Source: Trichobilharzia szidati
Taxonomy: Eukaryota > Platyhelminthes > Trematoda > Strigeidida > Schistosomatidae
Direction: 5' to 3'
DNA: 64,000 nt
NCBI GenBank assembly: GCA_944472155.2
Contig: OX235271.1
Location: forward strand, 37,560,633 to 37,624,632
Under the pieces are notes generated by a model. That model made no database searches, was not told the DNA's origin, and saw only the letters and a list, made by a program, of their open reading frames with translations. A program made the position numbers and the translations under genes. Positions 38,410 through 63,347 of the stretch are shown here, one piece after another (position 1 is the first letter of the stretch; every line of letters begins with the position of its first letter).

Positions 38410-38645
38410 ATGTTTTTTTTCCTTCACGTTCCCAGTGGAACATAGGGCCTCAAGCTAGTGGCATGGAGTTTCTGTAGCAGTGTTCATTTTACAGTATGGG
38501 GTTGCTAGCCTCATGCCCAACCTTTCCTCTTGACCAGCATTATTTCTGGCTTAGCGAGGTGAAGGAGTGCGTCGGCCGGGGATCGAACCCCGGACCATGT
38601 GCATGATCGGCGAGTGTCCCAACCGCCATGCCAGCGACGGACTTA
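38410..38645 (-). mobile_element. SINE B
   Basis: On the minus strand the head begins near 38643 (GTCCGTCGCTGGCATGG), box B is GGTTCGATCCCC, and the tail has CCCTATGTTCCACTGGGAAC followed by A-rich sequence at 38413. It lies directly next to the family K SINE. Confidence 0.9.
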
Positions 38646-38741
38646 ATATGCAACCTTGAAGGAACTCATGTCCCTTCTGAGATTCGAACCCGCGTCACCC
38701 AGTGATACAGTCAGAAACGTTACCACTGAACTATTCGGGCT
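38646..38741 (-). mobile_element. Family K SINE, tRNA-like head only
   Basis: The minus strand reads GCCCGAATAGTTCAGTGGTA (box A) and GGTTCGAATCTC (box B), then GGGACATGAGTTCCTTCAAG. The same stretch at 53.98-54.04 kb is followed by a hammerhead; here it stops at the SINE B junction, before the ribozyme. Confidence 0.75.
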
Positions 38742-38884
38742 CTAGATCAGACAAATTAAAATCTTCTCATGTAGTGCTATATAATTCACACATGTTAAAT
38801 TTATTTTAAAAAATCACTTCCATTTTATGGATGTAGACAAAGCGATAAGAAGATGTAACTTGTCTGAATGACTGAATCACCAAT

Positions 38885-39904: not shown

Positions 39905-39990
39905 TTCATTCGTGTTGTTTAGGAGCGGAATCCAGGATGCACGGTTCGTCTTATTTGGGAATTGTCAGTTAGATGCAGCTGGATCTCCAG
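39905..39990 (-). ncRNA. Smα-type hammerhead ribozyme relic
   Basis: On the minus strand ATCCAGCTG is followed by CTGACAA, a stem-loop with CCCAAATA, then GACGAA and CATCCTGGATTCC. The loop and the TCCTGGATTCC flank match the hammerhead of the schistosome Smα repeat as I know it. Core G8, needed for catalysis, is A, and the GAAA box reads GAAC, so this copy should be dead. Confidence 0.7.
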
Positions 39991-41228
39991 TCATTGGTGG
40001 AACTTGAACACAACACCGATCGTTTCAAAAAGTAAAGGGTTATTTACTAGGCCCCCAGACATGAGATCCACGTCTTGGTTGATGTGTGCCCATTTCTACT
40101 GGGAAATGCAAGCACATTCAGCTGAAGAGTTTCAAACCGAAGCAAATAGGTGTTTTGGATTCCCCTGCTAGCAACCATGAATACAAAATATCATGCAAAT
40201 TCTCAAATATTGCTAAATTGTATGTACTAGTAGCTGTGATATTTGAGCACAGATGGAACATTTCGTCCGATATAATCAACTAATGAGAACTACAAACCAA
40301 TCTATTTGAAAACGAAAAACCCGAAATTTCCCCTTTGTTCTTCTGCATTCCATATGATACTGATTATATGAGGGTTATAATCAAAAAGCTACTTCTGCAC
40401 TAATCAACCATTCTACTCAGTATTGTCTCCTTGTATTCCAAAATTTTCCAGCTAGTTGCTTTTTCATGTTATCATTCTATTCACTGCACTGTAATGTTCT
40501 GGCCTTATTCGCTCCATTGACCGTAAATCCAACTTAAGTTCAGGATTATCCAGATTAAATTCAGACATTCGAAAATGTGCACCCTTCTTTTACTATACCA
40601 CACTATAACGGCAGACGACAAGAGACTTGGCGAAGGAATGACCATTAGGAATTTGGTGTCTCTATATAGCCAAACTGTGTACATCTTATCTCCATATCAT
40701 CATTTAGACAGATATTCCATGTTCTGCCACTTCTATCCTTCGTATTGTGTTTCTTTGTCTTCCTGTCCACTTCCTCCATGTTTTGTCGGAACGTTGAATC
40801 GGTTGTTCGCCTTGACGTCAATTCTATCTTCCTGCTACTTGACGTTTGTACGCTGATGAACGTCTCTTTATATAAGACAGATAAGCCTTATCGGTAACAC
40901 ACGGTGGCAACAGAACTCCCACTAATTATATTAGTGTATATAGTGGTAAGCAACTCAACAGTGTCAAACACCTGCAGTTAAACTGACATGCGCATTTCAG
41001 CTAAGAGTTTGTGTCTGCAATCTGGTTTATTCTACCTGTTATGGACACATCTGATATTTGATTTGTGAATATTTCAGTTCATATCTAGTTTAAAGTCTCA
41101 CTCGCTAATGATTAAATTCGAGGTATATGTTGATGATGATTTCAGCTGATTTGATTAGCCATTGCAAATATGAGAATAAATGAAGAGTTATTTTGTGGTC
41201 AGTCTTTGAATCTCGGCGACAGTCGGTG
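39991..41228. other. No gene recognised; possible promoter-like stretch near 40868
   Basis: TTTATATAAGACAG at 40867-40880 resembles a TATA region of an LTR, but I found no matching second LTR or internal coding. Confidence 0.4.
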
Positions 41229-42237: not shown

Positions 42238-45101
42238 AAATAAGGCATTAAGAAGACAAATTTCGCGAGATGATATCATTTCGTAGTTTCTTTACAACCG
42301 CTTTACAACTAACATGTTTAACAATAATAAAATAAAGTTCATGACAATTACTCAGTTAAATAAAAACAAAAGTACATACTAATGACCAATCATATTTAGA
42401 TAGGTCAAGTAGTCCAGGGTAGGCGAAGATTGAAGTCTATTGATTTTTGTACACACAGTTTAGGCTGTATGTGATTAATCCAAAGTGCTTCCATCACCTT
42501 CAATAACCTTGAATTAGAGTTATGTTAAATAATTGTAAAACAGTCATCAATATTGATTTTGTGACCTGACATTAATAAGTGTTTTGCAATGGATGATGCT
42601 GGATTTCTATTCAGATTACTGGCATTGGGATTTTCTATATGATTTAGTAGCCATTTTGGAACATGTTCTTTCCGACGACATTGGAACATTCTGTTGGTTC
42701 TACCTATATAGGTGTCACCGCAGCTGCAGGTGAACTTGTAGATACAGTCTGAAGTAGAGTCCACAGAATTTCGTCCTTTAATCCTAGGTACAGGGATCGA
42801 AAATGTTCGGCAAGTGAGAAAAAGAGATGCGGCGTAGAATGTGCGTTTGATGGCTGACCGAAGTCTTTGAGCTGTCAACTGCATAATCTGATCACCCTTG
42901 AATGGTAGGTTAATAAAGATAGCTTTCTTTGGTACAGTAGCTGTCTTTTCGAGATGTGGTCTTTCTTTACTGTGACAAGTGATAAAGTTTTCCGGATAAC
43001 CATTAGCTAATAAAACTGAATGTATATGTCGAAACTCATCCATCACTGTGTCACTCGTGCATATTTTTCGGGCCCTTGAGAACAAACATTTCACTAGGGA
43101 ACGTTTATACTGGATAGGAACAAAACTGGTAAAATGCAGATATTGTCCACTCCATGTCTGTTTACGAAAAATAGATCTCTGAATCGTACCATCATCTCTC
43201 CTGGTCATTGTAATATCGAGGAAACCGAGTTTGTTATTCGATTCGAGTTCGGAAGTCACTCGGATATTTGGATGAATATGATTAAACAGAGTAATAAAGT
43301 TTTCAATAGATTTACTATTATTACCAATAATGAGAGTATCATCTACATAACGTTTATACAGCATAAATTCTCCCAGCATACCTTGCATTTGTCTCTCCAA
43401 TTTCGACATGAAAATATCTGCTAACAGGGGCCCAAGAGGGCTCCCCATTCCAACACCATCGATTTGTTTGTATGCCTTTTCTTCAAAGGTGAATCTAATG
43501 TTTTGTGTACACATTAAGATGATGTCTCTGATGTAAGTTACAGGAGTAGGTAAGTTTATTTCATTGCTTGTGATGTAATCGCAGATGAAATCAACAGTTT
43601 CATTAAGGGGAACATTGGTGAATAGAGATTCTATGTCAATTGAGCACATAACCTTATCCTTGATGTTCAAGGTGTCTAGCGTATCTATCAGATCAAATGA
43701 GCTTTTTAAAGAATTATTAGATAATGAGTCTCTTACAGGCATAAGGACTTCTGTAATCCATTTTGCGATTTTGTGGTATGGAGAACTCGACATGTCTAAG
43801 ATGGGTCTCAGTGGGTTTCCAGTTTTGTGGATCTTCGGAAGGCCATAAAGCTGGGGAGTATGTGACCCAATTGCTTTAAGTTGTTTATAAAGCTTTTCAT
43901 TTATAAAACCATGCATCAGTAAAATCTGAAGCTGACGGTTGATCTGCTTTTCCACAAGCAGCACATTATCAGTAGCATTGTCCACCAGAAATTCGGACTG
44001 ATCTTTGAGGATATCATTCATTTTATTTTGATAGTCCGATTTGTCCATAATGACAACGCCTTCTCCCTTATCAGGCTTAAGGATAATAAGATTATATTTT
44101 TCAATTAATTCCTTAAGTGCGGCGTGGTGTTCTTTTGATAAACCATTTTTCTGGTGTATTCTAGCATTTATAAATTGTTGAGAAATGTCTACCAGTTTAA
44201 CTTTAAACCAGTCAAGATTATCTTTACTAGAAGGAGTTAAATCGGAGATTTGATCATAAAGGTTTTCATACTGTGACTGAACTTCCATTTTGTTTATTTT
44301 CATAGGAATAGTTTTGTACTTCAATCCATAATAAGATAATGCTTCCAACTGTAGTTGGGATAGAGTGCAGTTAGATAAATTAATTATATGCTTGTGGATA
44401 TCTTGAGGAAATTCCAAAATATGATTCGTGTCTTTCAAAGATTTTGTTAATTTTTGTTTGGTAGGACTTATGGTCTGTTTTACCATATCATTGCAAAATA
44501 CAGTGAATTTAATACGACATACTAAAGATAAATTATCCATAACTGGAATTAGTCTTTGGTGTGTTTCAACAAATTTCGAAAGTTTGTCATTAATTTGATC
44601 AATTTCTAATTCAGCAAAATGCCGAAGATTGGAGAGTGAAGATTTTGACTTATTTCGACGTAGTGATTTGTAAAATGATATAGGAAAATGTTTATTTTGG
44701 ATGCAGTTGCGATAAAACCTTAGTCGTTCACGCTGAATAACAACTTTACATCAATATTAATGACTGTTTTACAATTATTTAACATAACTCTAATTCAAGG
44801 TTATTGAAGGTGATGGAAGCACTTTGGATTAATGACATACAGCCTAAACTGTGTGTACAAAAATCAATAGACTTCAATCTTCGCCTACCCTGGACTACTT
44901 GACCTATCTAAATATGATTGGTCATTAGTATGTACTTTTGTTTTTATTTAACTGAGTAATTGTCATGAACTTTATTTTATTATTGTTAAACATGTTAGTT
45001 GTAAAGCGGTTGTAAAGAAACTACGAAATGATATCATTTCGCGAAATTTATCTTCTTAATGCCTTATTCAAATTTATCAAAGGGACTACTTGTTTTAATA
45101 A
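42238..45101 (-). mobile_element. Inner Penelope-like element (PLE-A), nearly complete
   Basis: The 2864-bp element lies between two copies of GCCTCTTCTATCT (42225-42237 and 45102-45114), a perfect 13-bp target-site duplication. Inverted terminal repeats of about 320 bp lie at 42239-42558 and 44751-45069, so the element is a long inverted repeat around one coding region. The right arm extends about 32 bp past the left one (TAAAACAAGTAGTCCCTTTG). The same terminal sequence recurs alone at 28.67 kb. Confidence 0.92.
42525..44540 (-). CDS. PLE-A polyprotein: reverse transcriptase plus GIY-YIG endonuclease
   Basis: This single 671-residue frame encodes the replication protein of the inner PLE. 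Visible are LIILKPDKGEGVVIMDKSDY (about 151-170), YGLPKIHKTGNPLRPILDM (232-250), SIDIESLFTNVP with the first catalytic Asp (300-311), GVGMGSPLGPLLADIF (362-377) and YVDDT with the catalytic Asp pair (398-402). FRKQTWSGQYLHFTSF follows (458-473), then CIYKFTCSCGDTYIGRTNR (599-617), the GIY-YIG-type motif. An in-frame TAA at 42525-42527 precedes more matching text, LKVMEALWINHIQPKLCVQK, so the natural protein would run to about 42405. The frame is also open upstream of the first ATG to about 44755 (RFYRNCIQNKHFPISFYKSL), so the true start is uncertain. All catalytic residues appear intact. Confidence 0.92.
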   Translation of the reverse strand: MDNLSLVCRIKFTVFCNDMVKQTISPTKQKLTKSLKDTNHILEFPQDIHKHIINLSNCTLSQLQLEALSYYGLKYKTIPMKINKMEVQSQYENLYDQISDLTPSSKDNLDWFKVKLVDISQQFINARIHQKNGLSKEHHAALKELIEKYNLIILKPDKGEGVVIMDKSDYQNKMNDILKDQSEFLVDNATDNVLLVEKQINRQLQILLMHGFINEKLYKQLKAIGSHTPQLYGLPKIHKTGNPLRPILDMSSSPYHKIAKWITEVLMPVRDSLSNNSLKSSFDLIDTLDTLNIKDKVMCSIDIESLFTNVPLNETVDFICDYITSNEINLPTPVTYIRDIILMCTQNIRFTFEEKAYKQIDGVGMGSPLGPLLADIFMSKLERQMQGMLGEFMLYKRYVDDTLIIGNNSKSIENFITLFNHIHPNIRVTSELESNNKLGFLDITMTRRDDGTIQRSIFRKQTWSGQYLHFTSFVPIQYKRSLVKCLFSRARKICTSDTVMDEFRHIHSVLLANGYPENFITCHSKERPHLEKTATVPKKAIFINLPFKGDQIMQLTAQRLRSAIKRTFYAASLFLTCRTFSIPVPRIKGRNSVDSTSDCIYKFTCSCGDTYIGRTNRMFQCRRKEHVPKWLLNHIENPNASNLNRNPASSIAKHLLMSGHKINIDDCFTII

Positions 45102-48651: not shown

Positions 48652-51600
48652 ATGAATCTTCTGGGTGAGTAGTTGTCTATTCTTCATAATTGCAAGTCCG
48701 TTGCAAAGTGACTTCCAAACAGAAACTCGTGATACTACTCGTTTTATGGCTTCCTCTATTACCAGTCCTCCATCTGTACACTCAGCATTATTTCAACAGG
48801 AAAGTGTCAATAGAGACCAATGATTGTTGGCAAACATTATTGAAGAACAGCATAGATTTGAAAGGGAAGATAGAATGGATATATCAGTCGACATTTTCGT
48901 TGCGCACACTGACAGGTGAGTATAATTTTCACCCGTACACCATTTAACTATTTATTGATTAAACAGAAACATGAGTACGATAAATGAATGAATAGTTTAG
49001 AAACTGATTAATTATTTGAGACAGTGACGTACACTATTAAAGAAATATTTTTAAGCGATATAACTAACATATGATAGACAATAAATTCCATCATTTGAAC
49101 CACTCAAATTTAAGGGGGTCACAACAGATCGCATTTCAATAGAATTGTGTTTGTGGAGTAGAGTAATCTGTATAGGATCAATCTCAATATACTTAACGAT
49201 GTCGATCACCTTCAACTGAGGTTATCGATGTTATCAAACCAACCAGTCGTGAACCGGTTCTATTCGCGTTAGGAATTTCACTGAAATATAGTGGATTATA
49301 ATTAGCTGAAAATTTTGCCTAAAGTGCCTCCTAATATTGCGTGATTATTAGCATAAACACACTTCAAAATCACTTCCTTCACAACATTAATGTTGTTATT
49401 ATATAATGGGAATTCAGTAAATCTGAGGAATCGTCAGGTGTTTCTTGTCTTTTTGAATATGTATAAAATTGATACACATTGATTTAGGTACTGATGTCTA
49501 GGCTTTATACATTCCAACCGCTAGAGTTCCTTCTGTGAATCATCACTTGCGTTCAGTCGGCCATTTCTTTAGTATTTCATATCTGATGACGAGAATGTTT
49601 AGGAAATGGTTTGTTTATAGAATTCTACTGATACGCCTAGCGACGACTGAAGTTCAAATAAAGCTCTGGGCCATTGTTCAATGTGTGCCTGGAGCCTACT
49701 AATCACTACTCCTAATTATTTTAGTGAATACTAGTCTATGAACTGACTAGTTGTAACCAGTAGCATACTGGAAGATTTCACAAACTGCTTCATGCCACTT
49801 TACCATGCATGAATATATAACTTTCGTGTTGCGTATGCTTCCCTTTACATAAGTACGATGATTAGGCTGTTGTTCGACCAAATTAGAATGGTTTGTATGT
49901 TGCTGTTTAAAATAAGGTTTGACAACTCTTTGAAACAATTAGTTCCCTTTATGAATTTAGATAAAGCAATAAGAAGACGTAATTTGTCTGAATCGTGTAA
50001 TGTATTTGCGCAACACATTTCGAACAATCTGATCACACACGGACTTGTCATAGGAATATATATGAAATTAATAAAGAGGTAAGAGGTGAGAAAATAGACT
50101 TAGGTCAAGTTTAAAGGACATATTCAAGGTCAAATTAACAATGAAGACCACTAAACCAAATAACAGAGGTAATAGTACATCTGCTATGGTATCAAAACAA
50201 AGTTTACCAAGGAAGGTGGTTTAGTGTGATGACGAATTGTTTTTGAACGCATAAAGGTGGCTTAAACTTTCTAATTGCTAGGGCTTCCACAAACTTTAGG
50301 ATACGCCCCAAACACGTTTTATAGATAGGTTTAAAAGATCTGTTAACGTCAATTTTATGTCCTGTCTCTATAATATGTTTCGCAATAGAAGAGCTAGGTC
50401 TCCTGTTCTCACCGTTAATAGGTTCTGAAGATTCCATTTGTTTCTGGAGCCATTTAGGAATATGCTGTGAAGCCAGCCCTTACTTGCAGAGATCGATGAG
50501 TCCTCCCTATGTATGTGTGTCCACACGTACATTCAAATTGGTAAATACAGTGGGATGTGACGTCATTTTTCGCATGTTCGAAGGGCTTAGATAGATATAT
50601 TGGCTTTACATTCTCTATTATTATGATATTGGCTGCATAAAAAGTCTTTTTGACAGCAGCGTTCAGTCTTTGTCTAGTTATCAAGCTGCTTTGATGCCCC
50701 ATATAGGGTAGCTTGATGTACACGTCTTTCTTAGGGGCGAGCTGGAGAGTGGGTCTTGGTGTTCTGACTACTTTATATCTCCTGATGAACTTGTCTGGAT
50801 AATTGTTATCAACCAGAGTTTGTGTCAACATTCTTTCTTCCGCATCAAGTGTGTCTTCAGTGCATATTCGTTGGATTCTACTGAAGAGGCACCTTACTAA
50901 GGCTCTTTTGTACCGAACAGGGCAGAAACTGTGGTAATTAAGATACTGTCCTGTCCATGTAGGTTTTCTATAAATAGATCTTTTTATTGACCCATCAAGC
51001 CGTCGACTAAGCAATATGTCTAGGAAAGATAAACAATTATCTTCCTCTTCTACAGATGTAAGTGATATGCTATTCTGGACTTCATTCATTCGATTTAAAA
51101 TTGAGGTGGCAGAACAAGACTTATCACTGATGATTACAATATCATCTACATACCTTCTATAAAGTGGCACATTTTCGATTAAATCCTCCGATAAATTCTC
51201 AATGTACGACATATAAATATCTGCTAAAAGGGGCCCTAACGGACTTCTCATTGCAACACCATCGACTTGGCGGAAACAATCGCCTTCAAATGTAAACCTA
51301 ACATTGTTAGTACATAGAAGTAATAAATCCCTTAAATAAGATATAGGGAATGGGATGAAAAAATTGTTTGTGGAAATATAATCACACAAAATGTCAACTG
51401 TTTTGAGCAAAGGCGCATTAGTGAATAACGAGTTTACATCAAAAGAGTACATATTCTTATTCATAATATTAATATTACTATCTTCAAGAAAATCAACCAA
51501 TTCAAATGTATCTTTTAACACATACTTACAGAATTGTGTTTTTACTGGATGCAATAATTCTACTAACCATTTAGCAAGTTTATGTGTTGGGGATTTGCAC

Positions 51601-54600
51601 ATTGACAATATAGGACGTAGAGGATTATTGGGTTTATGTATTTACTAATTTGAATGTACGTGTGGACACACATACATAGGGAGGACTCATCGATCTCTGC
51701 AAGTAAGGGCTGGCTTCACAGCATATTCCTAAATGGCTCCAGAAACAAATGGAATCTTCAGAACCTATTAACGGTGAGAACAGGAGACCTAGCTCTTCTA
51801 TTGCGAAACATATTATAGAGACAGGACATACAATTGACGTTAACAGATCTTTTAAACCTATCTATAAAACGTGTTTGGGGCGTATCCTAAAGTTTGTGGA
51901 AGCCCTAGCAATTAGAAAGTTTAAGCCATCTTTATGTGTTCAAAAACAATTCGTCATCACACTAAACCACCTTCCTTGGTAAACTTTGTTTTGACACCAA
52001 TGCAGATGTACTATTACCTCTGTTATTTGGTTTAACAACTCATTAATTAAATGATTGAATCTGGTTTATGTGATCTGAAAATCTATGATTACATTTACCA
52101 CTTTTAAATGAAGCGCAAATTCACGCACGTGAGCATTTGAGAAGACTTCTTTACTTCATTTTGAATGTTCGGTGTTGATAATTATGTGACGCTTAGCGCT
52201 GAAGTATGTACGAATCTCATCGCTTTGAACATTGTGTCACCTGAAATGAATCAAATTCCTATAATCTGATTCCTGAAAAAAATCACCATGCATTCATTCT
52301 GAAGTACTCCTTAAAATCTGAATATTTTCTTCTTGGCAAAGTGTATAACTAAGCAAATTGTAGAACAGAATAGAACAGAACACAGCAATGTTTGCATTGA
52401 CACAAAATCAACACAAGAATGCGCAAATGTGCTTAATCTAGCCAGTTGCACCACACATGAGGAAAAATACTAAGTTGCATGGAGAACAACAAAAACTATA
52501 AAACTCAAGTTTCGAAGTCGTGTGTTTATAATTGATATGATTATGAACAATAAATTTAGTTCGAAACGTCATTCAGTAAATAATACTATTTCACTGTGTG
52601 ATATATCTGATAAACAAACTAATGTGGGATGAAATGGCTTTCTAACAGTCTCAACTACAGAAGGAACGGACGAGGATGTCAAATCGAGAACCGCGAAGGC
52701 GAGAAACACATTCATCAACCTCCAACCAATCTGGAAATCTTCGTCACTCACTCAGCCTGCATCAACAACAAAATTCGGATTTTCAATACAAACGTCAAGT
52801 CAGTCAGTTCTTCTATATGGATGGATCAGAAACTTGGCCAGTGTGTCACAAAGAATATTTCCAACAGCCTGTTGCAGACCTCTATCAACAACTAGCTGTC
52901 TTCGCTCCAAATTGAAGATGAGATTGCCGGAAAGAATCACCAACAAGAAACTATGGGAACAAACAAAACAAGAACCAATCGCTCAACAAATATGCAGGAG
53001 AAAGTGGAGATGGATTGAACACTCGCTGAGGAGGCCGCTGGGTGACATCGCGTGTCAGGCCAGTGCTCGAGTGGAACCCGAGAGGGAAGCGGTGAGTGGG
53101 ACGTCCAAGGGTGACATGGAGGAGGTCTTGTGAAGAGGAGAGTTGAAACAGTATGGATTAACATGGACGCAGGTGAAAAGTACAGCAGAAGACAGAAGCA
53201 AGTGGAGGCGTGCAGTTGAAGCCCTATGTTCCACTAGGAACCCAAGGGAACAATAATAATAATAATTACTGCCAAATCATATTAGAAATAGAAGTGATTA
53301 TGAGGAAATGTGATACTCTCGAAAATGTTGATTAATTCATCCAAGTGGATTGTCACGAGTTGATCAAGAGGATTGTGGGCACAATGATGAATAAAACGTG
53401 GTAGTCTATAAATGATTTAATAATTTATTCCTTTCACATTGTTATGTAGCCATGGTTAATCGATGCATAATGACCGAATTTCAAATGTGCTAGAATTCTT
53501 GCTGAAATATCGTTTAGCAATCACACAAACAAGTGAAACAAACTGGGAACCTTCGTCTACAGACATTGTGTTTACAACAAGTGTGGTTTCGCCCATCATT
53601 GATGTTAGTCTGTAACTTATCATCTGCCCCCCCCCCCCAGGTAAATCATCTTGAATCACTCCTAAGGTGAATCCTGCCATTTTATGACGCTCAAATGAAA
53701 TAACAAATTTCTTTGCGTAACTTATGGAAACAAGGATCTTCGTGAAGAATCACACAACAGTGTTTCAGGAGATTGATATTTCAACACATTTTGAAGTATT
53801 CTAATAAAATTCGGCTGTTCTCTTTAGTGGAATACGCAAAATATATGTGAAATTACTCTATTCCAACACCTGGACAGATATTTACCTGTTTGGGATGATA
53901 TTAGATGGTTGGAGGCAATCGGCAGGAAGCCTTGGACCTAGGTTTCGTGCTAGTTGGCACTCGTCAGCAGGGCGTATCTGCAACCTTGAAGGAACTCATG
54001 TCCCTTCTGAGATTCGAACCCGCGTCACCTGTCTCCAATTGATTAAATGTCAGTAGGAAAATGCACTGACTTAAATATGATGTACTTCACAAGTCCGAAA
54101 CAAGGCTGTTTATTGAACTTTGATAGGATACACTCGTTTTACAGATATCAGTCACCAGCTTGTGTATGAAAACAGATCTTTGGCATTACTAGTTCAACGT
54201 CACTTGTGTCTCTTGAGAATCGAAAGGCACATCAATTACTCCACACATTATCATGGCTAGTTCTGACGAACTAAGTACTTTCATGTCCCCACCATTCTCA
54301 TGCATGTACTCAAATGATACCATGTAGTATTATATTTAGCAGCTTCATTTTGAAATGAATTCGGCCGAAATGACTAACATTCAGTTGGCATATCTTTTTA
54401 ACCAAGATACATTTCCCTCCGGATATTCTCATGAAATCCTTCGACGTCGTGCAATACATTACGTGCATGAAATGGAGTACACCTTGACCAACCTTCAAAA
54501 TCAACTCACTGATTTGCAAAAGCTGAACAAAACAGTTATTGGGGGTGCCGCAATATCCTCACTTGAAAACAATTTGTCCATATTTCAACAACAGCTCACA

Positions 54601-57600
54601 GAGATACTGTTCAATACTGAGAGAGTTCTGAATCAATTGGGTCAAGTGGATGGATTTTCTGAAGAGAGGATTTCCAGGCTGAATGAGATATCTCGAAGAG
54701 TACAGAAGAGGATTCAACAGTTGCAGGTAAACAAAATCTCAGTTGATTAGGCTATTGCAATGAAAATGGCGTGTGTGCCACTTAACTTTATGAAGTTGTT
54801 CAGTTTTAATATGTTCATATTGCTCATGATTCTCGCTTCTAACACTAGTAATCCCAAAATCTGAGCATGTATGCAAACCACATTGCTATTTACCAAGAGG
54901 ATTCTATTCTGCTTCACCAGTGTCTAATTGGAGAAGTGTGTATTCTTCCCCAAGCAATCAAATTTCAGGAAGCCCGGCGACCAAAGACCACAAAAATACT
55001 TGATTAGCTTATTGCGATAATCTAGCCACCGGCGATGTCTGCATATCTAAATGTGCAGATACACAGGAAAATAATTGTGGGGAAAAAGACTTAAAGATAC
55101 GTATTCAAATCGATGGTGCGTCGTTGTCTTTTTTCTTAGCAAATCACAATTAAATCATGCTTTTTCAGTCATCCCTCTGACAATAGAATTTAAAGATGAA
55201 TAACTATGTACGCACGAAGTAAGTATTCACTAGTCGTGTTCGGCTATGCTCAACTGAAACACTTCTATCCCAGACGAAGTGGAAAGGCTGTACACCTAAC
55301 TCGGTATCACATAACTTCTAACTTTATAAAACTCTAAACGCGTTTACTTCCTAAGATATTTACATTGTAATGCCACTTTGAGTATACTTAACACCACCTG
55401 CATTCAAGTGCGGAGAACAAATTATTTTCTCCTGTAACAGTAATACATTTTCGACATTGTCATTTTCTGACTGATTGTAGAATCCGGCTGACTGCAGGAA
55501 AGCCAAGTTTGTGACATTCGATTTCCTAGATTTTTGTGGATTCGGTTGTTCCATGCACCGGTTGACCTACTGCCTACAACTGTCTGTGGAGAGTGGACGT
55601 GTATTGGTCTTGAAGAGACATGGGATTGGAGATATTTTCCGAGAATGGTTGCGGCAGAACATCCTTCCGATTTCTGACAAGTGCAGTTATCGAGACATCT
55701 TTAAAGCGTCAGGTGCGTTGAATATTCTATTTCATATCTGTAACCAATATTAGATTTAATTACTTCCATGTCAATATGATGAATAATACGCTGCATAAAC
55801 TCGTATAATCGCTCACGTATAAAAATATCACACGAGTAATTTATGTATTTCCATAGTGATAATTATAGAAAAAGCTTTAGTCAAATAAGTAATTTCATTA
55901 AATTCTCACCAGACTTTACATTTACATCATGAAATGTTTGTCGTAGGCATTTAAGTCCACGCTATCGATGAAATATGGGATCAGAGTTCAGGGATGTGAC
56001 ATAGCGAATAACAGTCGAAGTGATCATAATAATAATAACAAGGATAGATTCAATCAAGTTTTTATATAATCTAGGCAACTTTCAGTGTGTATATATAATG
56101 TACATACTAGTAAGGCTAGACTATTGTCACATGGAACTTAGATAGTAATTATTATTTATTATTATTGTATCCTTTAATTCCTACAGGAACATAGGGCTTC
56201 AGCCGTGCGTCTCCATTGCGTTCTGTTCTCTGCTACAGTCTTCACCTGGCTCCATGTCTGCCCACACGTTTTCATCTCCTCTTCACATGACCTCCTCCAA
56301 GTCACCCTTGCACTGACGACCAACTCGCCGCTTCCCTTTTTGGCCGGGTTCCACTCGAGCAATGGCTTGTCTAGTGATGTCACTTGATGATTTGTTTCCT
56401 CAGAGTATGGCCAGCCAATCCATTTGCATTTCTTCCTTCCTATTTGTTTCACAATCGGTTCCTGCTCGGTTGGTTCGCTCATTGCCAGAGATCTCTGTCG
56501 CTGATCATTTCTGGTCGGCCATCTGATCTTGAGTATTGAGTGAAGACAACTGTTAATGAAGGTCTGTAGTTTGTTTGAGATGCTGTTTATGACGCGCAGT
56601 GTAAGTCTCATATCCGTATAGCGAGTAGCACTGACTTCCCATTGGAGTTGAAAATCCGGATGTTATTTTTGATGCAGAGTGTTGTTGTCCTCCACACAGA
56701 CTTGAGAGTAGTGAAAGTTTGTCTTGGTTTTCTGATTCTTGCTTTGATATCCTCGTCAGTTTCTCCTGTAGTTGAAACGATGCTTCCCAGGTAGGTAGTG
56801 GAGGTTGTTTCTTTCAGGTTCCTCCCATTTATGCTGCTGATTGTTTTCTGTTGTTGTTGTTGCTGTTGTTAGTAAACTAAAAGTATATTGTGAAACCAAG
56901 ATTAAAGTGTACAACAATATCACAGCAGGATAATGATAATGCAGTTTGTATTACAAATAAAATAAAATAAGGATATAATGAGATAATATTTATATCTTCA
57001 CTTGTGAAGAAGAGCATGATGGTAGACTACACTCCTTTGATGTTCTGTTGAGCAGAACACAGGATGGTTCACTCAAGAGAGATGTCTATAGAAAACCAAC
57101 ATCTGTAGGACAATATACACATTTCCTCAGTTTTCTATCAATCCGATACAAAATCAATTCGGTCAGATGCCTCACGAATAGAGCAAGACGGATCTGTACG
57201 GGTGACTACCTAGAAAATGAGTTAGGGTGTATCAACAGAAGGCAAGACACGGAAGCCCCTGTTTATATGTGTACAGTTTATATTCTCCAACCAATCACTG
57301 AGCGTGTGATTTCGGTTTACATCAAAGCACATGAAATGGAATGTTCGAATATACATAGTATTCTTTTGCAAATGCAGTATTAAACTGTGGGAATAAAATT
57401 CCGACTCTAACATCAAATAGAATGTTCAAATAGATATATCATATTCTGTTACTAATGCCGAATGGAATCGTGAGAATATGTGGGAATACTATTCCGTTGG
57501 CACACATTGTCTGTATCGCACCACCACACTCGTCCTCCCGTTAAATAGTTTAGACTGAAGTTGGCTTCATCTTCTTGGTGCTGGCGTCTTCATTTGCTTG

Positions 57601-60600
57601 TCTCGCTGTATCCATTTCCGGAGCTCAGTGACGTTCACCTACTTCTCTTTGTCTGCATTTTCGGCGGTATGTACGTGACGACGTCTCACGGTGACCGTGT
57701 ATGGTCCTTCCCACTTTGGAATCAGTTTTCGTGACCCTGGCGTGGATTCGCCGGTGTTTCGCCTGTCTCTACATTTAACTTGATCTCCGATCTCGAATGC
57801 TGAGTACACCCCCTTACCCTTGTTGGGATTTCACAGTGTTTGTCTTCTGCTTTCGTTTTACGTTGTTGATTGGTCCTTTCCGCTCCGTCCACCATCTCGT
57901 CATAATCCACTGCTGGTGGTGGAGCCAGGTCTTGTTATATATTGGTGGTCATGGTTTCCTTCTGTACATCAACTGAAACGGTGATTTATTCGTCATTTCT
58001 CGGGCGGATTCACTATGTGCCGGTAGAATCACGGGGAGCTCTGTTCTCAGTTACTTCTCCTTGTAGCCGGGGACTATTTTAGAGTATGGCTATTTCTCTC
58101 CGTCAAACCGTTCGTTTGTGCATGATATGGCGTTGTTCGAATTTTCCTCATGCCGATTGCTTGCAACCAAATTTTAAACTCTTCACTTTCAAAATACGGA
58201 CCCTGATCTGTCAATATCGCTTACTGCACACCCTGGTTTGCAAAGACCTGTCGAACCACTGCTTCTGTCACCGTCTTTGCTCGTTGATGGGGGATTGCGA
58301 CTGCGTCTAGCCATCGTGTGGCGTATTCTGTCATTACCAGAAGGTATTGGCTGCCATTATACGTCTGAAGAAAAGGTCCCATTACATCTATTGACCACAG
58401 GTAACCCACTGCTGTCACTGGAATCGACTGCGGTGATGGTCGTATGTACTGGTCACCTTTCACCAGCTGACATTGCTTACATGCTGTTACGTACTTCTTC
58501 ACGTTTTCTCTTATATCTGGCCAGTACATGCTTTGTCGCAGGAGATCGATCGTTCTGGCAACGCCTGTGTGTGACAGTTAATGACATTTTTGTGTCATCT
58601 CTTGGCGCAGGCATCGCGGTATTACTGCTAATCAGCTTCCGTCATCCTCCTGCCACTTTAGCATTCTGCAGTCATTCAAGTCGCTCGCCGACTATGCACA
58701 TGGTCCGGGGTTCGATCCCCGGCCGACTCACTCCTTTACCTCACTAAGCCAGAAATAATGCTGGTGAAGAGGAAAGGTTGGGCATGAAGCTAGCAACCCT
58801 ATCCTGTAAAATAAGCACTGCTACAGAAACTTTAAGCCACTAGCTTGAGGCCCTATGTTCCACTGGGGAACGTGAAGGAAATAAAAAAAGTCATTCAAGC
58901 TCATTCGGTCTTTCCGTTTGAGTTGGGGATTTAACTCACGATTCGCTGTAGGCTGATTCACATTTCTTCATTAATTATCACTTGTATGACAGTTTGCAGG
59001 GCGTCCCCCGATCTTTAACTCTGGACAATTCTTGCTGGATCTTGCTCTAAGGCATCTACACTATATGCTATTTCAAGTAACTCTACCTCTTCTGTTCTAA
59101 ATAAAATATCCGGTAACACGTTCTCTTCACCTCTTTCAGTCGCAACATCCACCTCGACAACTTCTCACGTGGGCCTCTGGCAGTTATCAACCACTGCCAC
59201 GGCTTATGATCAGTCTCTACGAGGAGGCATAGACCACGTAAATAGGGTCTCCATTCGTCTAATGCCCCCACAACTAGATAAATTATGAACATAATTCTAA
59301 ACACACAATCGCCAAACATTCCTTCCCTTTTGTTGAATATTTCTATTCTGTGTGTGATGAAACACAGCTGGCGTATTCGACGACCCCGTCACCCTGTCTG
59401 AGTGCTGCACCTATTCCGTAGTCACTGGTATCCGTAGACACTGAAGGGCTTTCCTGGCAACCGTAGTCATAGCATCATTCTCTGGTGATCCATCAGCTGT
59501 TTGGTGCGGTCGAACACCCTCTGTGAGTCTGCTAACCAGACCAGCTTTGACTCGCCTAATAGTCGGTAGAGTGGAGCCGCTACCTTGTTGAAGCTTTAAC
59601 GAACCGACTAAAGAACATTAATCCCCCAGGTAGTGGTGTTATCTCACCGTTTCCCACCTTGTATCCTAAAAGCACAACATTCTTCATAGCAATCTGAGAT
59701 TTCGCCTTCTTGATGCATAGACCGAATTCTCCGTTACGTCTCAGAACTGTCTCTGCATGCTTCACTTGGTCACTCTCGCGCGTACTTTATATCACTAGAC
59801 TATCTCCATAAACTTCGACGTTTCTCAGATTCTTAAGCAGCAACGTCATTAATCGTCTAAATGTAAACCAGGCACCTGTCAATCCAAAAGGCATGCGTTT
59901 AGACCGATATTGTTTCTGTCCCACAAAGAATACCGTCTTATCTCTATCTCCTTGCTTTATTGGTAGTTGCCAGTACCCTGATCGCAGATCGGAGACTGTG
60001 AACAGCTTCGCGCTTTGTAAGCGATCCAAAGTTCCCCTTGTAGTTGGCAATACACACGGTCTCATCTCTGTTATGCTGTTCAGTTGTCAGAAATCAACAC
60101 AAAATCTGTATTTCATGTTGCTTTTCTTCACTAATAGCACTGGATAACTATATGGGCTATCGGATTCTTCAATAATGTCATCCTTCAACATCTCTTCAAC
60201 CTCTCTTGCAACCTCGCTTTCTAAATGACACGGAACTCTTCGACTTATGAATGGTCTCACTTTCCCGGTCGTCACTGGAATTTCGTGCTCCACTTTATCA
60301 CAGTAACTGTACGGATGTCTATCTCCAGTGAAAAGATGGTCATATTCGCTAAGTAATGTTGCTACACATAGTACTTCCAACGCTGCAATCCCTGCTACCT
60401 CACTATGCTCGTGCATGCTGAAACACCCATACTTCGTAACGACAATCCTTTTCCTCATGTTAATCACTGTATCTACTTCTCGAAAAAAGTCTTCTCCAAG
60501 GATTGTTCAACAAAACTCGGGTACAACCAGGAATGAAAACTTCGCGTCAACCTCTCCATTACTAACTCTGCAATCTGACACTCCTGCAACTCTTAACACG

Positions 60601-63347
60601 TGCCACTCCACTGTCTGCACTATCAACGAACATGGCCTTATACTCCATCATAAACTCTTATCTACGAGTGAGACTGCTGTGCCTGTAATAGTTAATTAAA
60701 CACACCAATTCGCGGTCATTTACGCGCAACTTCGAATACATCACCCCATTCTCAATCGCCCCTATTATCTCAAATCTCGGAGAATAGAAAGAAGACACAG
60801 TATACCTTTTATCCTAGTAGATTTGTAAGGAGACACATGAAGGCCAGTAATAATAAAGAGGAACTGACAACAGTTAAAAAGAAACAACTGTCCTAAAATT
60901 GCAGTCTGATGGGGACGTGGCTAGTGAAGTCTCACACGTAAGATTATCGAGAGCGATAAAACGGACTTATACTGCCGCTACCCTTTGTTTTTTCTTCAGT
61001 CGATTAATTATGATAGCCCAGGTGAAAGACATCCTACCTAGCGGTGCTACTTCTGTGTGTATCCACAAATTTAGTTGCTTCTGTCGAGAGGGCGTATTAA
61101 TGAGCATCTATGGTTCGGAAAAGACCAAATAAAATCTATGAGAAAATATATTATGACTAATCTGATTGGTGATAGAGGACACCAGGTGAACAGGAGTGAT
61201 GCCTTCAAAGTTATCTATCCCATTCCATCGAGCCTTTCGAACGGAATTCGAATCCGTCTTCTACACATAGCCGAAGCTATGGGAACTCCAGAGAACAATC
61301 CTGGTTTTGCATACAAAAGACGTTTGTTCTACCTTTGTCTCTCCCTTGGTCTAGGTAAATTTTAATTCAAACAAATCCTCCCACCCTTTTTCATTTTCCA
61401 TCTCCTTCGTACTTTTATGGTATTTATTTAAATTCTGATTATCTGTCCACTTCACCTACAGTATTACGTAACTTTAAGGATTTGACCTAGATTATTTATT
61501 GAACTGTCTACATGTATACATATTACTTCCTTCTTTGTTCTATCGCCACCTGCATAAACCTTATTATCACTATTTTGTTATCGTTATAATCATCGTTATC
61601 ACTGACGTTCAAAACATTTACCACATTACTGTTATTATCATTATTTGATCTACAACATCACTGTCATTGTTTATAATTTCTATATCTAAATCTACGTAAA
61701 TTAAAGTAAAGCCTGAAGAAGATCTAATTCAGAATAATGTTGTTCGATTATACGTCTTGTTCTAATAGTAGTAATAATAATAATCGGAATTTTTGAAGAT
61801 TATTATGATCACCTCGATTGTTATTCATTATTTCACATCCCTGAACTCTGATGCTTTATTTCATCGACCGCATGGACTTAAATGCCTACGACAAACATTT
61901 CATGATGTAAATGTAAAGCCTGATGAGAATTCACCGAAAATACCTATTTGCTTAAATCGTGTTCTGTGAATATTGTGCAATTGTAAGAAACGTGTTGAGA
62001 AGTTCCCCTATTCAGAATATCTTTCGTATTTTGAGGATTTCAAACTTGCCTATTTCTATTTTTTTGCCAGTGACACCGATACAGGGAAAAGTGTGTTAAA
62101 AATGTCATTAAAAGTAGTTCTTAATTCTATATTTAACTAATTTCAGAAGAAGGTGATTCTAATTAAGAGATGTCGATTCATAGAATACTCTATAATTAAA
62201 CATGTCTTGCAAGTGCATTAACAAGTTGTTCCTGGAGTGTCGAATTTATATACTTGTGTGTTGACAAAGATCAGTTTGGTTACAGGATTTTCATCATGAG
62301 CTGACATTCGTTAGAGAACCATTGGAAAACCTGGGAGTACTGGACAGCTGTTTCATCCTACTTTGGGACCATTCATCAGTACGCACCCACCGGGATTCGA
62401 ACTCAGGACCTTCTGGTTACAAGGCTAGAGAGCTCGTATACCATTAAGCCACCAGGACCTGAACCAATGGTCCTTGAATTCTAACTTCTGCCGATTCACG
62501 ACATAGTGCGACCATTTCGGAGTGTCTCCTTCCATGAGTTACTGCCTCATCTTCATCCTGTTGTACCCTACTGGTCACGGCTTCCCACTAGAATCCCGTG
62601 ACCAACGCTATGCCGTGAATTGGCAGTAGTTAGAATTCAAGGACCATTAGATCGGGTCTCAGTGACTCAATGGTCTACGAGATCGCCTTGTAACCAGAAG
62701 GTCCTGGGTTCGAATCCCGGTGGGTGCGTACTTCTGAAGAGTCCCAAGCTAGGACGAAACAGATATCCAGTACTCCCAGGTTTTCCAATGGTTCTCTAAC
62801 GAATGTCAGCTCATGATGAAAATCCTGTAACCAATCAAATCTCTACAAACCAACACTTGAACATCATTTTGGTTAGCTATTGTGATGATTAGTAAACTCA
62901 ACTTCTCAACATAGTAGCGAGTAATACGTCACTGACTTCATCATAGTGACTTCACCTCATGAATGTTATCAACTTCGTTGATCGGAGTTGTAACATTTGG
63001 TTAAGTTGATCCAGTGCCTATTAAGTGGTTGATGTTAATTTCGTTTGACATAATGAATGTCAAGTAATTATAAAATTGTTTATTTAACTACAGATAGTTT
63101 GGACTGCTCTGAATTATTTTTTCATTCTACTCATCGACACCACTGGATTCCAAATATTCTACCAAGTGACTTGGCTACAGAATTATTTCGTCATCACGAA
63201 GCACCCTACGTTTGGTTTGCCGGTCAGCTAGCTGCGTTCATTCTGCGGCCTAAACCTCATCTCGCTGAGTTAATCAAAGAAGCGGTGAAGGAATTCAAGT
63301 CAAAACATCATCCTGTTGTAGGTGTGCATGTAAGACGTACAGACAAA
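48652..63347 (+). CDS. FUT8: Alpha-1,6-fucosyltransferase, first five coding exons, continues past the window
   Basis: FUT8 moves fucose from GDP-fucose to the innermost GlcNAc of N-glycans in the Golgi lumen (family knowledge). Proposed exons are 48652-48664, 48697-48915, 54407-54726, 55481-55712 and 63094-63347. Exon 2 encodes a type II membrane anchor (KLVILLVLWLPLLPVLHLY). Exon 3 encodes HEILRRRAIHYVHEMEYTL and a coiled coil ending RVQKRIQQLQ. Exon 4 starts NPADCRKAK and has CGFGCSMHRLTYC. Exon 5 has YVWFAGQLAAFILRPKPHL and the donor-binding VGVHVRRTDK. Joins 3/4 (phase 0) and 4/5 (phase 1, GAT) are exact and match human FUT8 order. Least certain: the 13-nt first exon with a 32-nt intron, and the exon 3 acceptor (54406 fits phase; 54339 or 54342 would need another exon). 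Catalytic exons lie beyond 64000. Confidence 0.9.
48916..49925 (+). other. FUT8 intron 2, first part
   Basis: After the GTGAGT donor about 1 kb shows no recognised feature. Confidence 0.5.
49930..50151 (-). repeat. PLE-2 end region, left side only
   Basis: TTTATGAATTTAGATAAAGC and AAGAAGACGTAATTTGTCTG resemble sequence at 38.83-38.87 kb. This looks like element-end sequence continuing from the PLE at 50.15 kb that has no partner on the right side. Confidence 0.45.
50152..52034. mobile_element. PLE-2: 5'-truncated PLE capped by an inverted copy of its own 3' end
   Basis: 50152-50548 and 51638-52034 are near-identical inverted arms of about 397 bp. Each arm encodes the C-terminal ESSEPINGENRRPSSSIAKH and EALAIRKFKP, minus strand on the left and plus on the right. 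Between them lies minus-strand reverse transcriptase. The junction at 51638 falls at GTATTTAC, present at both joined points, and cuts the coding region at IHKPNNPLRP. Located in FUT8 intron 2. Confidence 0.9.
50454..51608 (-). pseudogene. PLE-2 reverse transcriptase and GIY-YIG, lacking N-terminus
   Basis: The open frame reads RPILSMCKSPTHKLAKWLVE, then MYSFDVNSLFTNAP with the first catalytic Asp, and VDGVAMRSPLGPLLADIYMS, where the usual G before SPLGP is R. RRYVDDIVII keeps the catalytic Asp pair. YRKPTWTGQYLNYHSF follows, then CIYQFECTCGHTYIGRTHRS. After a frame change near 50455 the C-terminus continues to 50204. The N-terminal third is missing, so no full protein can be made. It belongs to the same broad PLE type as PLE-A. 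Confidence 0.88.
52035..52635. other. No gene recognised (FUT8 intron 2)
   Basis: AT-rich intronic sequence. Confidence 0.5.
52640..53265 (+). mobile_element. SR2-type LINE, 3' end
   Basis: Plus-strand frames give EGTDEDVKSRTAKARNTFIN, QICRRKWRWIEHSLRRPLGD and ASARVEPEREAVSGTSKG, then a 3' end with CCCTATGTTCCACTAGGAAC and AATAAT repeats at 53253-53267. The C-terminal 200 residues of the element remain, frameshifted. It lies in FUT8 intron 2 in the same direction as the gene. Confidence 0.85.
53268..53920. other. No gene recognised; C-run at 53629-53638
   Basis: Intronic sequence with a short poly-C tract. Confidence 0.5.
53924..53978 (-). ncRNA. Hammerhead ribozyme, intact core
   Basis: On the minus strand the core CTGACGA (53961-53967) fits CUGANGA. 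Stem II is GTGC/GCAC with loop CAACTA. GAAA follows, and stem III is a three-pair ACC/GGT with a two-base loop, ending in the cleavage triplet GTC (53937-53935). Stem I pairs GCCCTG with CAAGGC apart from one C-A mismatch. All conserved residues of the family are present. The short stem III resembles that of retroelement hammerheads. It is antisense to FUT8. Confidence 0.8.
53924..54040 (-). mobile_element. Family K SINE fragment: tRNA box B plus hammerhead
   Basis: The minus strand carries GGTTCGAATCTC (about 54016-54027) and GGGACATGAGTTCCTTCAAG, identical to 38.65-38.70 kb. The hammerhead at 53924-53978 follows directly. The box A half is missing in this copy. Confidence 0.75.
54727..55480 (+). 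other. FUT8 intron 3
   Basis: 754 bp with donor CAG|gtaaac and acceptor gattgtag|AAT. No repeat seen. Confidence 0.8.
56149..56870 (-). mobile_element. SR2-type LINE, 3' end
   Basis: The minus strand gives INSCLHSILKIRWPTRNDQR, EQEPIVKQIGRKKCKWIG, RVTWRRSCEEEMKTCGQTWS and EALCSCRN, then ATT repeats at 56149-56176. The open stretch is intact for 145 residues, but the reverse transcriptase is missing. The left edge of the truncation is at a (TTG)n run near 56850-56870. Confidence 0.88.
56990..57235 (+). pseudogene. PLE-D coding, first part
   Basis: FDVLLSRTQDGSLKRDVYRK, PTSVGQYTHFLSFLSIRYK and LTNRARRICTGDYLENELG match the segment after the YVDD box in PLE-A and PLE-2. It stops where gypsy sequence begins. 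Confidence 0.8.
57700..58529 (-). pseudogene. Gypsy integrase
   Basis: MYWPDIRENVKKYVTACKQC is the end of the zinc-binding region. IDVMGPFLQTYNGSQYLLVM carries the first catalytic Asp. Then come VTEAVVRQVFANQGVQ and, after frameshifts, HSESAREMTNKSPFQL and a C-terminal RTNQQRKTKAE. Confidence 0.85.
58681..58890 (+). mobile_element. SINE B, 5'-truncated, inserted in gypsy element
   Basis: It starts inside the tRNA-like head (TCGCTCGCCGACTATGCACA), with box B GGTTCGATCCCC, and ends CCCTATGTTCCACTGGGGAA plus an A-rich tail. The repeat (A)GTCATTCAAG at 58670-58680 and 58889-58899 is its target-site duplication. Confidence 0.93.
59083..59319 (-). pseudogene. Gypsy RNase H region
   Basis: VETDHKPWQWLITARGPREK and LSRWMLRLKE are the conserved RNase H end of gypsy polyproteins. 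The upstream part is in another frame. Confidence 0.8.
59580..60470 (-). pseudogene. Gypsy reverse transcriptase
   Basis: VEHEIPVTTGKVRPFISRRV, VEEMLKDDIIEESDSPYSYP, FTVSDLRSGYWQLPIKQGDR and MPFGLTGAWFTFRRLM are present. The catalytic box reads VYGDSLVI where YLDD is expected, so the second Asp is lost. It ends NGEFGLCIKKAKSQIAMK and LGYKVGNGEI. Frame changes occur near 59780 and 60070. Confidence 0.88.
60471..60715 (-). pseudogene. Gypsy aspartic protease region
   Basis: The minus strand reads TITGTAVSLVDKSL, where an active site would read DTGAAVSLVD, so the catalytic Asp is Ile. It continues QTVEWHVLRVAGVSDCRVSN, with FLVVPEF and LGEDFFREVDTVINMRKR leading into the reverse transcriptase. 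Confidence 0.7.
60795..61365 (+). pseudogene. PLE-D coding, second part (GIY-YIG region)
   Basis: SRFVRRHMKASNNKEELTTV, a stop, LSRAIKRTYTAATLCFFFSR, then SVCIHKFSCFCREGVLMSIY, where the GIY-YIG motif is disrupted. In another frame come DRGHQVNRSDAFKVIYPIPS and LLHIAEAMGTPENNPGFAYK, ending at 61365. It continues the frame order of 56990-57235 and so marks the right side of the gypsy insertion. Confidence 0.8.
61932..62263. other. No gene recognised (FUT8 intron 4)
   Basis: AT-rich intronic sequence between PLE-D and the palindromic SINE. Confidence 0.5.
62268..62850. mobile_element. Palindromic hammerhead-SINE pair (family H)
   Basis: Two arms of about 240 bp (62268-62505 and 62605-62850) are inverted copies around a 100-bp centre. 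Each holds a tRNA-like block (box A TGGCTTAATGG on the left arm's minus strand; box B GGTTCGAATCC at 62708-62718), a hammerhead motif and an outer tail (GGTTACAGGATTTTCATCAT and its reverse). It lies in FUT8 intron 4, about 240 bp before exon 5. Confidence 0.85.
62728..62773 (+). ncRNA. Hammerhead ribozyme candidate, sense to FUT8
   Basis: Stem I is GTACT (62728-62732) with AGTAC (62769-62773). The core is CTGAAGA (62734-62740), stem II GTCC/GGAC, the box GAAA at 62756-62759, and the cleavage triplet ATC ends at 62767. All core positions fit. Weak points: a C-A mismatch in the very short stem III and a mismatch next to the cleavage site. The partner in the left arm (about 62342-62384, minus strand) has an AT insertion after its core and an altered stem I. 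Confidence 0.6.

What the first reader, a model, noticed from the sequence alone, without database searches (positions are those of the whole stretch)
53924..53978. Hammerhead ribozyme with all core residues, attached to a tRNA-like SINE
CTGACGA, GAAA and GTC are intact, stem II is four perfect pairs and stem III is ACC-TA-GGT. It sits directly after a tRNA-like block with box B. Sequence in stems and loops differs from the Smα-type relic at 39.9 kb, so it may belong to another family of self-cleaving pol III transcripts.
Basis: partly seen in the sequence, partly recalled or inferred. Interest (0 to 1): 0.75.

Follow-up and report, generated by a model that had tools for sequence, protein, structure and literature searches.

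The report
Hammerhead retrozyme fragment beside tRNA-like head
The spot is a real, young fragment of a self-cutting RNA repeat that exists in thousands of copies in a bird-fluke genome; it looks like a further family of an already known kind of mobile element, and the way its copies are joined hints at what moves them.

Summary
The motif is real. On the minus strand, 53929-53973 matches Rfam Hammerhead_1 (41.7 bits, cut-off 34) with every core residue intact. The complete unit is 345 bp (head with boxes A and B, hammerhead, tail, linker) and occurs in tandem; one array has 15.6 units differing at one site. Two other hammerhead families share the genome; across the three, stems differ but stay paired. 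So this is a tRNA-headed, Smα-like non-LTR retrozyme family, a known kind; I could not compare it with the S. mansoni W-element sequences. This supports, without proving, the published idea that Penelope enzymes move retrozymes. No cleavage or transcript was tested.

The parts
53894..54029 (-). T-family retrozyme fragment: end of tRNA-like head, hammerhead, tail
   Evidence: One difference in 136 from a T consensus that I read by hand from the alignment, which includes this copy; 652 first-look candidates in the genome, 40 scored, those 40 at 91-100% identity, the copy itself included
53929..53973 (-). Type I hammerhead, core motif
   Evidence: Rfam RF00163, 41.7 bits against cut-off 34
53922..53981 (-). 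Extended hammerhead: outer stem I GCAG/CUGC with internal loop AUAC/UUC
   Evidence: Sequence; same layout as Smα-like GCAG-GUAC...UUCCA-CUGC; Rfam HH9 model aligns the same outer stem in the sister array, below its cut-off, while for this copy Hammerhead_1 was the best of its clan
53934..53935 (-). Predicted cleavage site (after GUC, 53937-53935)
   Evidence: Position by motif; cleavage not tested
53932..53970 (-). Stem I mismatch C53970·A53932
   Evidence: cmscan alignment; 78 exact copies with C against 4,840 with U
54010..54020 (-). Box B (GGTTCGAATCT); box A absent from this copy
   Evidence: Read from sequence; end of homology at 54029
38646..38742 (-). Second T-family copy: head with boxes A and B, no hammerhead, abutting a different tRNA-like SINE
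   Evidence: 94.8% to the T consensus; sequence
39920..40178 (.). Head-to-head pair of decayed Smα-like (family A) copies: 39920-39999 (-), 40098-40178 (+)
   Evidence: Rfam 24.3 bits for 39930-39974, below cut-off
62276..62840 (.). Head-to-head pair of family C copies: 62276-62484 (-) and 62630-62840 (+)
   Evidence: hammerheads at 62728-62773 (36.7 bits, over cut-off) and 62337-62382 (31.4 bits, under cut-off)
42239..45068 (-). Reverse-transcriptase element, Penelope-like by my reading, ORF 42525-44750, with an inverted copy of its 3' end at 44750-45068
   Evidence: RVT_1 48.1 bits; inverted repeat 319 bp, 98.7%; no GIY-YIG model match at E up to 10; fluke relatives
50152..52034 (-). Second, truncated element of that kind with the same inverted layout
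   Evidence: RVT_1 27.2 bits, under cut-off 29.6; inverted repeat 398 bp, 98.2%
54340..54750 (+). Stop-to-stop ORF with FUT8 similarity (probable exon); the T element ends 311 bp from it, in antisense
   Evidence: Pfam FUT8_N_cat 30.5 bits, cut-off 27.6

Best explanation
53894-54029 (-) is a young, truncated genomic copy of a Smα-like, tRNA-headed non-LTR retrozyme family with a 345-bp unit, which I could not match to a described family. Inferred life cycle: (1) pol III starts at boxes A and B of an intact unit and, since the unit has no T4 stop, reads through tandem units; (2) each type I hammerhead cuts after GUC, releasing 345-nt monomers with 5'-OH and cyclic-phosphate ends; (3) the ends are joined into a self-paired circle; (4) a reverse transcriptase borrowed from an autonomous element copies it into more-than-unit, unit or truncated cDNA that is inserted, often with a second, inverted piece joined head-to-head. 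Shown here: the motif, the unit, boxes A and B, tandem and inverted copies, paired covariation. Inferred: transcription, cleavage, circles, the enzyme. The window copy itself is a dead-end product without its own promoter.
For: Hammerhead over the Rfam cut-off. 13 of 13 hammerheads over cut-off in the array stretch L051. Array of 15.6 units of 345 bp with one variable site. 4,840 + 78 exact copies of the 33-nt ribozyme half, reversed-pattern control 0. Tandem neighbours at 345-354 bp (4 in the first 100 listed copies) and direct-repeat offsets of 346 and 358 in dispersed copies. Box A TAGCTCAGTGG, box B GGTTCGAATC and no T4 run in the unit. Three hammerhead families with different but paired stems: 90.0% of 350 cells paired against 27-37% when slid, 67 cells changed on both sides against 24.1 in shuffles, covariation score 0.512 against 0.206. 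Circular monomer fold -109.9 kcal/mol, z -4.0 against 100 shuffles.
Against: No RNA data at all. Two of the five covariation measures (number of pairs with double change, number of pair types) are not above shuffles, and the structure that RNAalifold predicts by itself has stems I and II but not stem III. The circular fold pairs 60% of bases, less than the 70% quoted for metazoan retrozymes (PMC4918200, passages), and its minimum-energy form does not show the active hammerhead. No tRNA model hit. No target-site duplications found. Only 5 of 12 near-complete T hammerheads in the held DNA keep both core motifs.
Confidence: 0.78

Rival explanations
1. A tRNA-derived SINE that picked up a hammerhead, moved by an ordinary LINE, with no circular stage; tandem arrays are satellite DNA grown by unequal crossing-over.
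For: Boxes A/B; many dispersed, truncated copies; 12 monomers 100% identical with one site stepping from T to C along the array also fits DNA-level expansion; other reverse-transcriptase ORFs are in the window (their LINE type is my recall).
Against: Dispersed copies longer than one unit keep a 345-358 bp period; inverted head-to-head pairs are frequent here but not in a hammerhead-free tRNA-like SINE of the same records (40 of 84 against 2 of 30 copies, p 4e-05).
Confidence: 0.2
2. A chance or fossil hammerhead without function.
For: The copy lacks box A and has a C·A pair in stem I; many copies are decayed.
Against: One difference from the family consensus; 4,918 exact copies of the ribozyme half; strong covariation between families.
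Confidence: 0.05
3. A pseudo-LTR hammerhead left by a Penelope insertion rather than a separate element.
For: Two elements that I take for Penelope-like lie about 2 and 9 kb away, and Penelope elements are known to carry minimal type I hammerheads (PMC7761336, passages).
Against: No hammerhead and no convincing tail similarity in the ends of the two elements (BLAST matches of 10-14 nt only); only inverted ends, no direct terminal repeats, were found around them; the T unit carries pol III boxes.
Confidence: 0.04

Closest known systems
Smα / W36.2 SINE-like retroposon of Schistosoma mansoni (332-335 bp; passages of PMC8490949, PMC2770079)
   Same: pol III-type head, type I hammerhead, similar unit length, tandem and dispersed copies; the Smα-like family A of this genome shares the outer stem GCAG/CUGC and a short palindromic stem III
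   Different: Stem I, II and III sequences, tail and linker differ; BLAST similarity to family A is 83% over 40 nt of the hammerhead plus a weak match around box B, 75% of 24 nt; unit 345, not 332-335
Metazoan non-LTR retrozymes (PMC7229834: abstract, passages, sections 13 and 17; PMC4918200: passages)
   Same: Non-LTR tandem units of 150-450 bp with type I hammerheads; multimers of the unit; self-paired monomer
   Different: Box A/B head, which PMC4918200 notes only for schistosome repeats; frequent inverted head-to-head copies; circular RNA not tested here
W25.2, W26.2, W27.2 hammerhead W-elements of S. mansoni (399-428 bp; PMC8490949, table lines and section 11)
   Same: Type I hammerheads with only weak similarity to Smα and very short stem III; in that paper 3 of 5 tested candidates, variants of W25.2 and W36.2, cleaved in vitro
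Penelope-like elements (PMC3846280, passages)
   Same: Head-to-head inverted end copies, variable structure
   Different: T is short and has pol III boxes; no 8-10 bp target-site duplication found
Rfam Hammerhead_HH9 (RF02275)
   Same: In the sister array, outer stem I and internal loop align, model positions 1-77
   Different: 42.6 bits, below its cut-off of 52

Membership tests
Type I hammerhead ribozyme | CUGANGA, GAAA, NUH core | tested here: met
Type I hammerhead ribozyme | Three stems, open at stem I | tested here: met
   Stem II 4/4, stem III 3/3 with a 2-nt loop, stem I 5/6 with one C·A
Type I hammerhead ribozyme | Stem I/loop II tertiary contact | tested here: inconclusive
   Internal loop and outer stem present; contact not modelled
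Type I hammerhead ribozyme | Self-cleavage | not testable with these tools
   none
Non-LTR retrozyme | Tandem units of 150-450 bp each with a type I hammerhead | tested here: met
   345 bp, 15.6 units, 16 hammerheads
Non-LTR retrozyme | Strongly self-paired monomer RNA | tested here: inconclusive
   z -4.0 but 60% paired
Non-LTR retrozyme | Linear and circular monomer RNA in vivo | not testable with these tools
   no RNA data
Non-LTR retrozyme | Target-site duplication, when present | tested here: inconclusive
   Not above background in 46 head-to-head pairs (27 A, 4 T, 15 C) nor around the target (longest shared word 5 nt); boundaries were set too early in many pairs because the unit runs on, so the test is weak
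Smα family proper | Sequence homology over the unit | tested here: not met
   Against family A of this genome only 40 nt at 83% plus a weak box B match; S. mansoni Smα itself was not available
Smα family proper | Internal pol III boxes A and B | tested here: met
   In the family unit; box A missing in the window copy
Penelope-mobilised element | Head-to-head inverted end copies | tested here: met
   20 against 1 tail-to-tail same-family pairs; 9 against 0 within 400 bp in the first 100 listed T copies; array joined to an inverted piece
Penelope-mobilised element | Target-site duplication of about 8-10 bp | tested here: inconclusive
   None found, weak test
Penelope-mobilised element | Shared ends with a resident Penelope element | tested here: not met
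   two elements only
Penelope-like element (the two elements in the window) | Reverse transcriptase plus GIY-YIG endonuclease | tested here: inconclusive
   RVT_1 found, no GIY-YIG model match at E up to 10; relatives carry PF00078, PF28514, PF26215; the Penelope label is my reading of the ORF and layout

The most novel reading that the evidence does not exclude
tRNA-headed hammerhead retrozymes (T, and likely Smα) are moved by Penelope-like elements: a circular or multimeric ribozyme-made RNA is copied by a Penelope reverse transcriptase, giving rolling tandem cDNA ended by an inverted, head-to-head piece. The C6 array, with an inverted piece at one end, 15.6 near-identical units and a tail at the other end, would be a snapshot of such an event.
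Probability: 0.4. Interest if true: 0.7.

Novelty: new member of a known kind. Interest (0 to 1): 0.5.

Why it matters
Which enzyme moves animal retrozymes is open; PMC7229834 (section 17) names Penelope elements as a strong candidate because of shared hammerheads, tandem copies and co-existence. Head-to-head inversion is a further, countable signature, and this genome offers thousands of copies, three families and a hammerhead-free SINE as control. The between-family stem changes also show that pairing of this hammerhead has been kept while its sequence turned over.

Tried and rejected
Linear folding of the 45- and 55-nt motif: not informative (z 0.15 and -0.31). Scan of the window for hammerheads with at least 4 uninterrupted stem I pairs: none, the target included, because of its mismatch. 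Hammerheads in the ends of the two Penelope-like elements: none. Target-site duplications: none. I first took the C·A mismatch as private to this copy; the array then suggested a subfamily; the genome counts (78 C, 13 of them in the array, against 4,840 U) leave it as a rare variant, perhaps recurrent. Self-priming at the linker hairpin (unit 144-164) as the single cause of inversions: rejected. By (and 109 for the array) the two arms end at unit positions 131/145 in L023 and 150/190 in L015, near the hairpin, but at 334/235 (L039), 314/249 (L043), 99/240 and 300/81 (L047) and about 108/211 (array) elsewhere. Arms of one pair from one cDNA: mixed. Arms share more variants than unrelated copies (means 0.16/0.25/0.16 against 0.04/0.07/0.04 for A/C/T), but 11 of 39 pairs share none, and two genomic pairs (L016/L017, L020/L021) were counted twice. 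Exact scans of viral contigs for two T motifs: no match. Protein search with the FUT8-like ORF: none of 10 candidates passed. I therefore lowered the novel case from 0.45 to 0.4.

Full report
The observation. Rfam's covariance models find a type I hammerhead at 53929-53973 on the minus strand, 41.7 bits against a cut-off of 34. Stem I has six positions, one of which is a C·A mismatch (C53970·A53932). Beyond it, GCAG/CUGC forms an outer stem around an internal loop AUAC/UUC. The Smα-like copies of the same genome have the same layout, GCAG-GUAC ... UUCCA-CUGC. In the sister array the HH9 model aligns this outer stem with 42.6 bits, under its cut-off of 52; for the target, Hammerhead_1 stays the best of its clan. 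Folding energy alone does not reveal the motif.

Where it lies. The window is part of G000, 1.11 Gb in 907 contigs. A reverse transcriptase of the window has its best match, 96% identical over 80% of the query, in a protein named Trichobilharzia szidati on a contig of 136,740,957 bases, exactly the length of contig C2 of G000. A second T. szidati protein lies on a contig of 142,264,673 bases, the length of C4. I take the genome for T. szidati, a bird schistosome.

What it belongs to. Three sets of DNA were held: 20 stretches of 10 kb at preset round positions on C1-C6 and C8 (L031-L050), the surroundings of 30 Smα-like hits picked by hammerhead score (L001-L030), and the window. They contained 165 BLAST-defined copies or pieces of three hammerhead families: 74 A (Smα-like), 66 C (as at 62.7 kb) and 25 T (the target's family). 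The target differs from a T consensus that I read by hand, and that includes it, at one of 136 positions: the C of the C·A mismatch. Whole-genome exact counts of the 33-nt 5' half of the ribozyme are 4,840 with U and 78 with C, 13 of the latter in one array; the reversed-pattern control gave 0 in both. These counts do not cover the cleavage site or the 3' side of stem I.

The unit. T copies run on beyond head, hammerhead and tail into a linker of about 150 nt, which also lies upstream of the head. L034 and L046 carry more than one unit in direct repeat (offsets 346 and 358). The genome search showed 13 hits spaced 345 bp on C6. Fetching that stretch gave an array at 21411939-21417320, 15.6 units and 16 hammerheads (13 in L051, 3 in L052). 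All 12 complete monomers in L051 are identical. Across the array one site varies: T, pairing in stem I, in the three leftmost units and C in the other 13. The right end stops in the tail; the left end joins an inverted piece of the unit. The unit has box A TAGCTCAGTGG, box B GGTTCGAATC and no run of four T. Its circular fold has -109.9 kcal/mol, z -4.0, 60% paired, but the minimum-energy circle does not show the active hammerhead. The tRNA-likeness rests on the two boxes. No tRNA model scored; besides the hammerheads the best was a chance-level Vault RNA match, E 1.2.

The target copy. It starts at 54029, just upstream of box B, and ends at 53894 in the tail. It has neither box A nor linker, and no target-site duplication (longest shared word 5 nt). 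It ends 311 bp from an ORF with FUT8 similarity on the other strand, so it probably lies in an intron or 5' flank of that gene, in antisense. The other T copy in the window, 38646-38742, has both boxes but no ribozyme and abuts another tRNA-like SINE.

Covariation. From 113 near-complete hammerheads (12 T, 53 A, 48 C) I picked 27 by hand (7 T, 10 A, 10 C), leaving out 5 T copies with insertions or missing ends; most A copies had been found by their hammerhead score. In this alignment 90.0% of 350 cells pair, against 27-37% with partners slid; 67 cells are changed on both sides against 24.1 in shuffles; the covariation score is 0.512 against 0.206. 8 of 13 pairs show double changes, a number that 383 of 500 shuffles also reach, and the number of pair types is not above shuffles either (485 of 500). 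RNAalifold's own prediction has stems I and II but not stem III. By consensus, stem I is AUCCAG/CUGGAU in A, GCCUUG/CAAGGC in T and GUACUG/CAGUAC in C. The stem III hexamers UGCGCA, CCUAGG and CAGCUG are all self-complementary, so a two-molecule hammerhead is conceivable.

Inverted pairs. In the sample and window (76 + 8 copies), same-family neighbours within 400 bp were 20 head-to-head, 1 tail-to-tail and 7 tandem, one of the seven (L039) being a single copy split by a deletion; different-family neighbours were 1 tail-to-tail and 3 tandem (binomial p 1e-05 for 20 of 21). In the score-picked loci L001-L030 (81 copies) the counts were 28 head-to-head, 6 tandem and 2 tail-to-tail of different families, with two genomic pairs counted twice. 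A tRNA-like SINE without hammerhead had 1 head-to-head and 1 tandem pair among 37 copies in all held DNA, 30 of them in sample and window. For sample and window the comparison is 40 of 84 copies against 2 of 30 in head-to-head pairs, Fisher p 4e-05. In the first 100 of 4,840 T copies, all on C1, neighbours within 400 bp were 9 head-to-head, 0 tail-to-tail and 4 tandem at 345-354 bp; one tail-to-tail pair lay 827 bp apart; random placing would give about 0.1 neighbours.

Link to Penelope elements. Two reverse-transcriptase elements of the window have inverted copies of their 3' ends in the same sense (319 bp, 98.7%; 398 bp, 98.2%). I call them Penelope-like from the look of the ORF and layout, which is recall and inference: the calls show a reverse transcriptase (RVT_1) with relatives in many flukes, but no GIY-YIG match. 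PMC3846280 (passages) describes head-to-head as the most frequent inverted arrangement of Penelope elements in a rotifer and interprets the palindromic junctions as self-priming. Against a simple link: no hammerhead or convincing tail similarity in the two elements' ends, no target-site duplications, varied junctions and mixed arm identity.

Comparison with what is known. Smα is a described SINE-like, hammerhead-bearing repeat (passages of PMC8490949 and PMC2770079; the 1998 paper is not held). Schistosome repeats have been shown among putative retrozymes, with a tRNA (PMC4918200, passages). PMC8490949 lists W36.2 (332-335 bp) and W25.2/W26.2/W27.2 (399-428 bp) as hammerhead families, and 3 of 5 tested candidates cleaved (section 11). 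T's 345 bp equals none of these lengths, but I could not compare sequences. PMC7229834 (section 17) proposes Penelope elements as movers of animal retrozymes. The search hammerhead + SINE + inverted + head-to-head gave 0 papers. The search retrozyme + Penelope-like + inverted gave 5, of which I saw passages of PMC4918200 and PMC7761336 only; there 'inverted' stands in the abbreviations and the reference list. The search hammerhead ribozyme + Trichobilharzia gave 0.

Verdict. The ribozyme is real; its kind is known, a tRNA-headed, Smα-like non-LTR retrozyme, in a family that I could not match to a described one. The wider finding, inverted pairs shared by hammerhead repeats and Penelope-like elements but rare in a hammerhead-free SINE, deserves follow-up.

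Noticed in passing
L052:40-1000 and L051:1-4421 (G000 C6:21411939-21417320): 15.6 units of 345 bp with a single variable site that steps once from T (3 units) to C (13 units) along the array, as if the template changed during synthesis or one repeat spread by recombination.
   Followed up: partly
window 39920-40178, 62276-62840; L036, L038, L043, L049, L050 and others: Head-to-head inverted pairs of hammerhead repeats in all three families, tails outward (20 against 1 tail-to-tail in sample and window).
   Followed up: yes
window 62728-62773 (+), 62337-62382 (-), 10687-10732 (-): Third, more decayed hammerhead family C (stem I GUACUG/CAGUAC, stem III CAGCUG), direct-repeat offsets 338-437; by length it may correspond to the W25/W26/W27 elements of S. 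mansoni.
   Followed up: partly
window 21571-21775, 29924-29998, 38440-38650, 58684-58858 and four more: A separate tRNA-like SINE without hammerhead (weak Rfam mascRNA-menRNA matches at 21701 and 29926, below cut-off), mostly solitary.
   Followed up: partly
window 38646-38742: T-family head that stops inside outer stem I, with no ribozyme or tail, fused to the hammerhead-free SINE; a 3'-truncated copy is hard to explain by target-primed reverse transcription.
   Followed up: no
window 53929-53973; families A, T, C: The stem III hexamer is self-complementary in all three families (UGCGCA, CCUAGG, CAGCUG), which would allow hammerhead dimers.
   Followed up: no
   Followed up: yes
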